A DNA stretch of 64,000 bases from Sphingomonas sp. AX6. GTDB lineage: Bacteria > Pseudomonadota > Alphaproteobacteria > Sphingomonadales > Sphingomonadaceae. The DNA is taken from the NCBI RefSeq assembly GCF_902506605.1, contig NZ_LR733979.1, positions 703,064 to 767,063 of the forward strand. The letters are read 5' to 3'. The notes below the pieces were generated by a model, which was not told where the DNA came from, did no database searches, and saw only the letters and a program-made list of their open reading frames with translations. Of the stretch, positions 57,191 through 61,097 are shown in pieces. The position numbers and the translations under genes are program-made. Position 1 is the first letter of the stretch, and every line of letters starts with the position of its first letter.

Positions 57191-58654
57191 ATGGCTACCA
57201 AGAACGCAGAGGCGCTCGCCGCCGCGAACAAGAAATACGAGTGGGGGTTCAGCTCCGACATCGAACAGGACTTCGCCCCGAAAGGCCTGAGCGAAGACAC
57301 CGTCCGCTTCATCTCGGCCAAGAAGGGTGAGCCCGAATGGATGCTCGACTGGCGGCTGAAGGCGTTCCGCCTGTGGGAAACGATGGAAGCGCCCGACTGG
57401 GCCAAGTTGAACATCGACCCGATCGATTATCAGGACGCCTATTATTACGCAGAGCCCAAGGCGAAGCCTAAATTGGGCTCGCTGGACGAGGTCGATCCGG
57501 AAATCCTGCGCGTCTACGAGAAACTCGGCATCCCGATCGAGGAGCAGAAAGTGCTCGCTGGGGTAGAGGGCGCGCGCAAGGTTGCGGTGGACGCAGTGTT
57601 CGACAGCGTGTCGGTCGCGACCACCTTCCGCAAGGAACTGGAGGCCGCGGGCGTCATCTTTCGCTCGATCAGCGAGGCGATTAAGGAATATCCCGATCTC
57701 GTCCGCAAATGGCTAGGCAAGGTCGTGCCGATGCACGACAATTACTTCGCGACGTTGAATTGCGCGGTCTTTAGCGACGGGACGTTCGTTTATATTCCCG
57801 AGGGCGTGCGCTGCCCGATGGAACTCAGCACCTATTTCCGCATCAATGCCGAAAATACCGGCCAGTTCGAACGCACGCTAATCGTCGCCGACAAGGGGTC
57901 GTACGTCTCGTACCTCGAAGGCTGCACCGCGCCGATGCGCGACGAAAACCAGCTCCACGCCGCGGTGGTCGAACTGATCGCGCTCGACGATGCCGAAATC
58001 AAATATTCGACCGTCCAGAACTGGTATCCCGGCGACGAGAACGGCAAGGGCGGCATCTATAACTTCGTCACCAAGCGCGCCTTGTGTCAGGGAAAAAATA
58101 GCAAGGTGTCGTGGACGCAGGTCGAAACCGGCAGTGCGATCACCTGGAAATACCCAAGCTGCGTGCTGAACGGCGAAAACAGCGTCGGCGAATTCTATTC
58201 GGTCGCGGTCACCAACAACCTTCAGCAAGCCGATACCGGCACCAAGATGATCCACAACGGCAAGGGTTCGCGCTCGACCATCGTGTCGAAGGGGATTTCC
58301 GCCGGGCGTTCCGACAATACCTATCGCGGGCTGGTGCGCGTCGGCCCGAATGCCGAGGGCGTCCGCAACTTCACCCAGTGCGATAGCTTGCTGCTGGGCG
58401 ATCAATGCGGCGCGCACACCGTCCCCTATATCGAGGTCCGCAACCCGTCCGCCCAGATCGAGCATGAGGCGACGACCTCGAAGATCAGCGACGACCAGAT
58501 GTTCTACGCCATGCAACGCGGGCTGGACGCGGAAAGCGCGGTCGCGCTCATCGTCAACGGGTTCGCCAAAGAGGTGTTACAGCAACTCCCGATGGAATTC
58601 GCGGTGGAAGCGCAGAAGCTGCTGGGCATTTCGCTTGAGGGGAGTGTGGGATGA
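57191..58654 (+). CDS. sufB: Fe-S cluster assembly protein SufB
   Basis: A 487-residue scaffold subunit of SufBC2D. Landmarks: [57 protein letters not shown] (Cys), [40 protein letters not shown] and [19 protein letters not shown]. It builds the nascent cluster with sulfur from SufS. First structural gene of the operon. Confidence 0.96.
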
Positions 58655-59121
58655 ATCTGACTCCCACCGAAGACGCACGACGCCTAAACATCCCTCCCCT
58701 TCAGGGGAGGGGCCGGGGGTGGGGCCTGTCCGCAGAGCGCCTCGCTCTGCTGCACCGGCGCGCCGCCGAGATGCGAAACAATCCCACCGAACCTGAAAAA
58801 CGGCTCTGGCGAGCATTGTTGGACGGACATAAATTCCGCCGCCAGGCGGTAATCGCGCCCTTCATCGCGGATTTCCTGTGCCCCAGAAAGGCGCTGATCG
58901 TCGAAGTCGATGGCGACACCCATGACGAAGCCAAGGATCGGCTGCGTGACGATCTGCTTGAGGAGCGCGGCTACCGGGTCGTGCGGATTACCAATGGCGA
59001 CGTGATGACCAATGCCGAAGGGGTATTGCGGCTGATCGCAAGCGCGCTAGCCGATATGGCGGATCGCTGGGAAAAGCCCCACCCCAACCCCTCCCCTGAA
59101 GGGAAGGGGCTTGAAGGATGA
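58651..59121 (+). CDS. DUF559 endonuclease-like protein inserted in suf operon
   Basis: A 156-residue protein. Core (residues about 30-130) matches DUF559/Vsr-like nucleases: [32 protein letters not shown] with Asp74, [13 protein letters not shown] (Glu85, Asp87, Asp89, His91) and [10 protein letters not shown]. Residues about 14-27 and 143-153 ([11 protein letters not shown]) are encoded by the flanking repeats. The ATG overlaps the sufB stop. It has no known suf role and probably arrived with the repeats. Confidence 0.8.
58692..59111. mobile_element. DUF559 gene bounded by inverted copies of a palindromic repeat
   Basis: The left copy (58692-58725) reads CCCTCCCCT-TC-AGGGGAGGG then GCCGGGGGTGGGG. 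The right copy (59076-59111), read on the other strand, is GCCCCTTCCCTTCAGGGG followed by AGGGGTTGGGGTGGGGC. They share TTCAGGGGAGGGG and GGGGTGGGGC and point toward each other, so the unit looks like a 420-bp element with imperfect inverted termini. No target duplication was identified. Mobility is inferred. Confidence 0.5.
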
Positions 59122-59123
59122 CT

Positions 59124-59867
<744 letters not shown>

Positions 59868-60968: not shown

Positions 60969-61097
60969 TTCCTCCCCTGGAAGGGGAGGGGAACCGCGTA
61001 GCGGTGGAGGGGTAATCTCCATTCGCGACGGCGTTCCTTTGGCCAGCTACCCCACCACCATCCTGCGGATGGTCCCCCTCCCCTTCCAGGGGAGGAA
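60969..61097. repeat. Palindromic repeat unit between sufD and sufS
   Basis: Arms of 27 bases at 60969-60995 (TTCCTCCCCTGGAAGGGG..) and 61071-61097 are reverse complements with one mismatch. The inner parts (ACCGCGTAGCGGTGGAGGGG and CCCCACCACCATCCTGCGG) pair loosely, so the whole can fold as one long hairpin. The outer motif CCTCCCCT is shared with the DUF559 repeat. Its right end supplies GGAGG, the ribosome site of sufS. Confidence 0.8.

What the first reader, a model, noticed from the sequence alone, without database searches (positions are those of the whole stretch)
58651..59121. DUF559 nuclease gene with inverted terminal repeats inserted in the suf operon
The gene interrupts an otherwise standard sufB-sufC junction. 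Its borders are inverted copies of a G/C-rich palindrome (TTCAGGGGAGGGG...GGGGTGGGGC), and its N- and C-terminal residues are encoded by those repeats. A Vsr-like nuclease carried by its own palindromic repeats would parallel REP-associated transposases (RAYTs) and could be an undescribed mobile or repeat-spreading system in sphingomonads.
Basis: partly seen in the sequence, partly recalled or inferred. Interest (0 to 1): 0.65.

Follow-up and report, generated by a model that had tools for sequence, protein, structure and literature searches.

The report
Nuclease genes paired with palindromic repeats
In Sphingomonas and related bacteria a family of small nuclease genes sits inside pairs of short palindromic repeats, and each nuclease subtype goes with its own repeat type, which looks like an unrecognised counterpart of the REP-transposase partnership thought to spread repeats in other bacteria.

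Summary
The DUF559 gene at sufB-sufC lies between inverted REP-type palindromes; the same palindromes form 8 gene-free inverted pairs (75-97 bp apart, REPIN-like) elsewhere in the genome. All 4 DUF559 genes of the genome are bounded by such pairs, of three classes. In the genus, 64 of 73 sampled DUF559 genes have inverted flanks scoring above all 292 control placements. Repeat class follows nuclease phylogeny (10 changes, 47 expected), predicts held-out loci (37 of 39) and holds across unrelated sites (32 of 39, 4.8 expected). Class-C repeats are numerous mainly with a class-C nuclease; class F is weaker. The RAYT domain is undetected in 57 of 61 genomes. The enzyme resembles the homing endonuclease I-Bth0305I and Vsr. 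Best reading: a cognate nuclease-REPIN system that works like REPIN-RAYT with an unrelated enzyme. Repeat cleavage and nuclease-driven spread are inferred. This copy is not fresh: sufB-sufC is a home shared across sphingomonad genera, though 78 of 87 genus junctions read lack the gene.

The parts
58651..59121 (+). DUF559 (Vsr/EDxHD-like) nuclease ORF, 156 aa; real start codon uncertain
58753..59049 (+). DUF559 catalytic domain (PF04480 match)
   Evidence: (G000:761816-762112)
58692..58723 (+). left REP, class A: palindrome 58692-58711 plus G-rich tail
59077..59108 (-). right REP, class A, inverted copy
57191..58654 (+). sufB, upstream neighbour, overlaps the ORF start
59118..59867 (+). sufC, downstream neighbour, overlaps the ORF end
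60971..61095 (.). gene-free REPIN at the sufD-sufS junction; palindromes 60971-60989 and 61077-61095; class G by reading the sequence
   Evidence: 764034-764052 and 764140-764158; folds as one long hairpin, z -8.4

Best explanation
DUF559 nucleases of Sphingomonas, and more loosely of its class, are the enzyme half of a cognate nuclease-REPIN system. The nuclease gene occupies the loop of a REPIN (two inverted REP palindromes). Its REP class is matched to the nuclease subtype, and short gene-free REPINs of the same class form a dispersed population in the genome. Proposed working: the nuclease recognises its own REP/REPIN, as a hairpin in single-stranded DNA or as duplex, and nicks or cuts it or a target. 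Repair then copies the REPIN, and occasionally the whole REP-nuclease-REP unit, to new sites, where the unit persists for long times in operon junctions. SHOWN: flanking, class matching across sites without flank similarity, gene-free REPIN populations, higher REP number with a matching nuclease for class C, invariant catalytic-type residues, purifying selection, no RAYT domain in the own genome. INFERRED: REP binding and cleavage, and that the nuclease drives spreading.
For: Own genome: 4 of 4 DUF559 genes lie between inverted REPs, palindrome spacing 396-462 bp, while gene-free pairs are 64-122 bp apart. Genus: 30 of 33 and 34 of 40 loci with inverted-flank score >=18; 132 and 160 shifted control placements reach at most 15 and 17. 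REP class on the protein tree: 10 changes, minimum 9, shuffled mean 47.1, 0 of 200 as low. Hold-out: 37 of 39 classes predicted from the protein, shuffled mean 6.2, maximum 14. Across homes without flank similarity: 32 of 39, shuffled mean 4.8, maximum 14. Class-C palindromes beyond the gene's own pair: 1-47 in 9 genomes with a C nuclease against 0-4 in 17 without, p 2e-4. The 4 genomes without DUF559 have 3, 4, 4 and 10 palindromes against a median of 35. Y1_Tnp in 4 of 61 genomes, none in own. carA linker: labelled REPs in 8 of 53 readable sites; in the 5 of these whose nucleases are all known, a nuclease of the same class is present in 5 of 5. Nine residues invariant in 70 proteins. dN/dS 0.05-0.21 in 9 of 9 pairs. 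Gene-free REPINs fold as long hairpins, z -7.6 to -8.8 in 3 of 3.
Against: Class F is weak: p 0.036; genomes G058, G053, G031, G038 and G060 have 113, 21, 19, 12 and 10 class-F palindromes with no F nuclease found. DUF559 copy number also correlates weakly with the reversed control pattern (rho 0.38, against 0.61 for the palindrome). None of these correlations is corrected for relatedness. Co-inheritance of gene and flanks as one unit explains the class matching without enzyme-repeat recognition. Classes E and I do not follow the tree cleanly (E needs 6 changes, 17 of 500 shuffles as low) and give 5 of the 7 misses across homes. At class level only 17 of 30 DUF559 loci pass. DUF559 also occurs on plasmids of cyanobacteria, Deinococcus and Azospirillum, where REPs were not tested. 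In Caulobacter a DUF559 protein, VsrA, was linked to DNA damage and a VSP-repair hypothesis (PMC12907096, section 12 read).
Confidence: 0.68

Rival explanations
1. Homing-type element: the nuclease is a free-standing EDxHD-like homing endonuclease whose target is a gene-free REPIN. It cuts the REPIN loop and the flanking REP homology copies the gene in. REPINs are spread by something else.
For: Second-best structural match is the homing endonuclease I-Bth0305I (Z 12.7; sequence E 1.5e-5). Where REPs are found on both sides the gene is in the loop position (59 of 73 loci with the same class on both sides). The same home can hold different subtypes in close relatives: L021 (Bp) and L129 (B), flanks about 92% identical, domains 42%.
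Against: None of the 78 gene-less sufB-sufC junctions read matches my REP expression. Class-C REP numbers are higher with the C nuclease. No other mover was identified, but apart from RAYT none was looked for.
Confidence: 0.15
2. Repair enzyme with hitchhiking repeats: DUF559 is a Vsr-like very-short-patch repair nuclease kept for the host, and REPs accumulate beside it because operon junctions tolerate them.
For: Structural match to E. coli Vsr (Z 10.2). Caulobacter VsrA work (PMC12907096). Residence at sufB-sufC in several genera and purifying selection.
Against: Does not predict inverted REPs hugging the gene (shifted placements lack them) nor REP class following nuclease subtype across sites without flank similarity.
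Confidence: 0.08
3. Plain transposon-like unit: the REPs are terminal inverted repeats of an ordinary cut-and-paste element and gene-free REPINs are MITE-like deletions.
For: Unit structure, 7 homes for class A and 8 for F; gene-free derivatives of narrow length range.
Against: Copies are few (0-10 per genome) and often at the same homes in different species. Many REPINs but few gene copies is the REPIN-RAYT pattern rather than the IS pattern (recalled). No target duplication was established.
Confidence: 0.07

Closest known systems
REPIN-RAYT systems (REP-associated tyrosine transposases)
   Same: Enzyme gene flanked by REPs; dispersed inverted REP doublets with common spacings of 71 and 110 bp in Pseudomonas (PMC3116915 passages), here about 77 and mostly 101-111 bp; REP class matched to enzyme; few enzyme copies.
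   Different: Enzyme is a PD-(D/E)XK/Vsr-like DUF559 nuclease, not a Y1/HUH protein; Y1_Tnp found in only 4 of 61 genus genomes; the gene sits in the loop of a REPIN; frames often run through the repeats.
EDxHD homing endonucleases (I-Bth0305I)
   Same: Fold (Z 12.7) and sequence profile match; a 2022 paper already calls a DUF559 gene an EDxHD-family member (PMC9403480, passages).
   Different: No intron or intein seen; flanked by REPs; no separate long DNA-binding region in the 156-aa protein.
Vsr very-short-patch repair endonuclease and Caulobacter VsrA
   Same: Fold (Z 10.2); VsrA carries DUF559 (PMC12907096, section 12).
   Different: REP association; mismatch repair not indicated here. 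Whether VsrA itself is REP-flanked was not checked.
Rickettsia palindromic elements (recalled, no call)
   Same: Palindromic repeats inserted in frame in protein genes, here in carA and glyS.
   Different: Here a class-matched nuclease is identified.

Membership tests
DUF559 (PF04480) | profile match above gathering score | tested here: met
   92 bits, cut-off 20.6
REPIN-RAYT | Y1/HUH tyrosine transposase (PF01797) as the enzyme | tested here: not met
   the protein matches DUF559, no Y1_Tnp match listed at E <= 1; no Y1_Tnp match in the own genome
REPIN-RAYT | REPs flank the enzyme gene | tested here: met
   64 of 73 genus loci score >=18
REPIN-RAYT | gene-free inverted REP doublets dispersed in the genome | tested here: met
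   8 class-A and 5 class-B gene-free pairs in the own genome, counted by eye
REPIN-RAYT | enzyme binds and cleaves its REP | not testable with these tools
   needs purified protein
EDxHD homing endonuclease | Vsr-like catalytic fold | tested here: met
   3r3p Z 12.7, rmsd 1.8, 91 aligned
EDxHD homing endonuclease | motif residues E, D, x, H, D | tested here: inconclusive
   E49, D74, D87, H91, D96 invariant in 70 rows; not matched residue by residue to the published motif
EDxHD homing endonuclease | encoded in an intron or intein, or proven homing | tested here: inconclusive
   stand-alone ORF between REPs; homing not testable here
Vsr | NCBIfam vsr (TIGR00632) above cut-off | tested here: not met
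   14.1 bits, cut-off 97.85

The most novel reading that the evidence does not exclude
A second, independently evolved enzyme class (Vsr/EDxHD-like DUF559 nucleases) maintains and spreads REPIN populations in Alphaproteobacteria that lack RAYTs, with about ten co-evolving nuclease-REP specificities in one genus. It replaces the HUH transposase in an otherwise RAYT-like partnership.
Probability: 0.6. Interest if true: 0.87.

Novelty: new variant of a known kind. Interest (0 to 1): 0.8.

Why it matters
How REP repeats arise and persist in genomes without RAYTs is, to my knowledge (recalled), unexplained. Here is a candidate enzyme with a built-in set of about ten matched enzyme-repeat pairs, so repeat recognition can be tested by swapping pairs. 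It would give a biological setting to DUF559, whose one bacterial member that I read about (VsrA) is proposed to be a repair enzyme, and would show that REPIN partnership arose at least twice with unrelated nucleases.

Tried and rejected
Fresh insertion into suf: rejected. 67 of the 80 class-A hits kept in named genomes of several sphingomonad genera lie between sufB and sufC; the query alignment A2 held 6 suf copies among 10 rows and only the best 80 of 351 relatives were kept, so this share is biased upward. Pure vertical descent at suf was neither shown nor excluded: the genus label needs 10 changes on the nuclease tree against 5 on the SufBC tree, Mantel rho 0.15 (largest of 999 permutations 0.21), same nearest neighbour in 30 of 72 (72 of 76 loci used).

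RAYT in trans: rejected for the own genome. Phage carriage: only 3 weak phage hits. Plasmids: 20 records, one of them a suf operon on a 385-kb plasmid.

Empty site in glyS: none of the 5 relatives tried aligned on both flanks. Exact target duplication: not established, because the linkers are too variable.

Loci that fail the flank test: L034, L044 and L048 (L044 was mis-sliced at a contig end and shows a class-E REP on one side; L048 a class-C REP on one side); L116, L127, L130, L133, L134 and L138 (L127, L133 and L134 carry a class-C REP on one side, L130 class A on both, L138 weak palindromes, L116 none clear). The 40 loci were picked by me from lower rows, not at random. Loci without a class label were left out of counts: 3 of 73 (a fourth row, L044, was dropped for length), 1 of 40, 5 of 113. 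A class label could come from one arm only; 59 of 73 have the same class on both.

Full report
WHAT IS IN THE WINDOW. The ORF at 58651-59121 overlaps sufB and sufC and carries a DUF559 domain, E 2.7e-26. It lies between inverted copies of a G/C-rich palindrome at 58692-58723 and 59077-59108, 32 nt, 84% complementary. The core has only these two hits in 64 kb with up to 3 mismatches; 0.02 are expected. Whether the repeat-encoded N-terminus is translated is open: RefSeq starts a relative's gene 72 bp after sufB. In 71 of 76 class-A loci the frame runs through both palindromes.

NAMES. That 'genus' means Sphingomonas and 'class' Alphaproteobacteria is inferred, for instance from contigs G121:C163 and G138:C93 having the lengths of S. 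sanguinis and S. parapaucimobilis contigs returned.

REPINS. Searching the own genome (3.02 Mb, one contig) for the core with up to 2 mismatches gives 26 sites, against 1 for the reversed control. By my reading, 16 of them form eight gene-free inverted pairs 75-97 bp apart; 2 are the pair around the window gene, 397 bp apart, the extra length being the gene; 2044604 and 1473721 have no partner; 489660 is paired with a different core; the other 5 are two-mismatch sites of other classes. A looser core (CCTCCC-N2-14-GGGAGG) has 93 sites against 2 for the control, in several classes. Three gene-free pairs folded as near-perfect hairpins (z -7.6 to -8.8), while the two window repeats folded singly do not stand out (z -0.6, -1.7). 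This is the layout called REPIN in Pseudomonas: inverted REP doublets with common spacings of 71 and 110 bp (PMC3116915, passages read).

ALL FOUR DUF559 GENES OF THE GENOME ARE BOUNDED THIS WAY. One search finds four DUF559 genes and one search shows inverted REPs tight against each, of three classes: A at sufB-sufC, B beside a GatB/YqeY-like gene, G in the two others, one of them at a glyQ-glyS junction (gene names read from translations and recalled). In the genus, DUF559 occurs in 57 of 61 genomes, 0-10 copies each. Inverted-flank score >=18 was found in 30 of 33 loci (4 own plus the 29 returned) and 34 of 40 further ones that I picked from lower rows. Shifted placements in the same loci reached at most 15 (of 132) and 17 (of 160). 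Across the class, 93 of 289 genomes have DUF559, and 17 of the 30 returned loci, one per genome, score >=18, controls at most 13 of 118 placements. The association is therefore broad but looser outside the genus. Among 80 named class-A loci (the best 80 of 351), 74 of 78 testable score >=18 and 77 of 78 carry class-A REPs on both sides with up to 4 edits; of 288 control placements two reached 18 or more, the largest 23.

COGNATE CLASSES. I read ten REP classes off the loci by core and tail; the scheme is mine, and class I is loosely defined. On the nuclease tree of 72 loci (69 labelled) they need 10 changes (minimum 9); shuffled labels need 47.1 on average and none of 200 shuffles is as low. 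Class E taken alone is scattered (6 changes, 17 of 500 shuffles as low), and many forks are unresolved with 105 columns. For 40 loci fetched afterwards, the class predicted from the nearest earlier protein was right in 37 of 39 labelled cases, shuffled mean 6.2, maximum 14. Co-inheritance at one site could fake this, so I merged loci sharing any detected flank similarity into 32 homes (113 loci; short flanks at contig ends may split some homes artificially). The nearest protein at a different home has the same REP class in 81 of 108 loci, and in 32 of 39 when one locus per home and class is counted (shuffled mean 4.8, maximum 14). Classes A, F, G and H were right in 25 of 25, B and C in 4 of 4; E, I, Bp and D account for the 7 misses. 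Gene and REP class therefore stay together over 7 (A), 8 (F), 6 (G) and 4 (H) homes. Conversely, one home can carry different subtypes in close relatives: L021 (Bp) and L129 (B) share about 92% flanks but 42% of the domain.

DO REP NUMBERS DEPEND ON THE NUCLEASE? Palindrome CCCTCCC-N2-14-GGGAGGG, which does not cover classes C, D and E: 3739 sites in 61 genomes against 99 for the control. Rank correlation with DUF559 copy number is 0.61 (0.57 after genome size), but the control pattern also correlates (0.38). The 4 genomes without DUF559 hold 3, 4, 4 and 10 sites, against a median of 35 in the rest. Class-specific tests used the 26 genomes whose DUF559 genes were all listed and fetched. Class C: 1-47 sites beyond the gene's own pair in 9 genomes with a C nuclease, 0-4 in 17 without, p 2e-4. 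Class F: 3, 5 and 121 in 3 genomes with, 0-113 in 23 without, p 0.036; G058 (113), G053 (21), G031 (19), G038 (12) and G060 (10) have many without a detected F nuclease, while G024, whose loci closely resemble those of G058, has one. Only these two classes were tested, and nothing is corrected for phylogeny.

REPINS MOVE. A linker of CarA, 7-9 residues in 34 of 53 readable genomes, holds labelled in-frame REPs in 8 of the 53, of classes A, B and Bp (59 genomes fetched, 6 gave no anchor; first seen). In the five whose nucleases are all known, a nuclease of the same class is present (5 of 5; among the 26 fully known genomes class A occurs in 7 and class B in 8, and G024 and G058 are close relatives). 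Of the three partly known genomes G018 matches, while G022 and G033 show no match so far. The four nuclease-free genomes have linkers of 7-8 residues. Other repeats also use this linker (G021, G031, G050). That these are independent insertions is inferred from the differing classes.

THE SUF HOME. Of 90 sufB-sufC junctions fetched in the genus 87 were read: 9 hold the gene, 78 do not, and none of these 78 matches my REP expression. The 90 are the 30 nearest by SufB (own included) and 60 that I picked; three more genomes with the gene there by coordinates (G009, G025, G037) were not among them. Of 80 class-A loci from named genomes 67 are at this very junction, including Sphingopyxis, Novosphingobium, Sphingobium and Erythrobacter, with the bias noted under Tried and rejected. 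It is an old home with much loss, some exchange, or both; the trees do not decide.

THE ENZYME. Nine positions are invariant in 70 proteins: R42, E49, Q65, D74, D87, G88, H91, D96, R99. The model (pLDDT 81, repeat-encoded ends of low confidence) matches NGO0050 of Neisseria (Z 14.5), the homing endonuclease I-Bth0305I (Z 12.7) and Vsr (Z 10.2). Synonymous rates exceed amino-acid rates about five- to eighteen-fold in 9 of 9 pairs, so the protein is under selection. The RAYT-type Y1_Tnp domain is in 4 of 61 genomes and not in this one.

LITERATURE. Fourteen papers in the held library mention DUF559. I read passages or a section of three of these (PMC12907096, PMC9403480, PMC12308824) and saw the others only as listings. 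Searches for DUF559 with palindromic, REP, inverted repeat, transposase plus mobile, and homing endonuclease, for REP with Sphingomonas and for REPIN/RAYT/Vsr-like terms listed no report of a DUF559-REP link that I could recognise. Subscription papers are mostly not held, so this is not proof of novelty. PMC9403480 already places a DUF559 gene in the EDxHD homing endonuclease family. PMC12308824 reports segments with a transposase and DUF559 as putative recombination hotspots in Legionella. A search of PMC3733652 (palindromic repeat survey) for sphingomonad and Caulobacter names found none.

VERDICT. The system works like REPIN-RAYT but is not a member, since the defining enzyme is absent. Recognition and cutting of the REP by the nuclease are the untested core of the claim.

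Noticed in passing
L364 and homologous carA sites: A CarA linker is an in-frame hotspot for repeats: REPs of several classes and an unrelated repeat family (STSL..NG..SEVE) sit at the same place in different species.
   Followed up: partly
L008 around position 1501-1595 (G000:2022679-2022773): A class-A REPIN lies in frame inside glyS of the own genome.
   Followed up: partly
sufB-sufC junction, L065-L094 and L304-L363: The junction is a variable slot: 14-1151 bp, often with unrelated small ORFs, in the 78 of 87 junctions that lack the gene.
   Followed up: partly
L424 (NZ_CP155753.1): A suf operon with the DUF559 gene lies on a 385-kb plasmid of Sphingomonas parapaucimobilis.
   Followed up: no
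genome G058: 113 class-F palindromes but no class-F nuclease found; G024, with closely similar loci, has one. A possible recent loss that could be used to time REPIN decay.
   Followed up: no
genome G033, C1:3078773-3081874 and 428505: Four Y1_Tnp matches, three of them clustered, in one of the 4 of 61 genus genomes with this domain.
   Followed up: no
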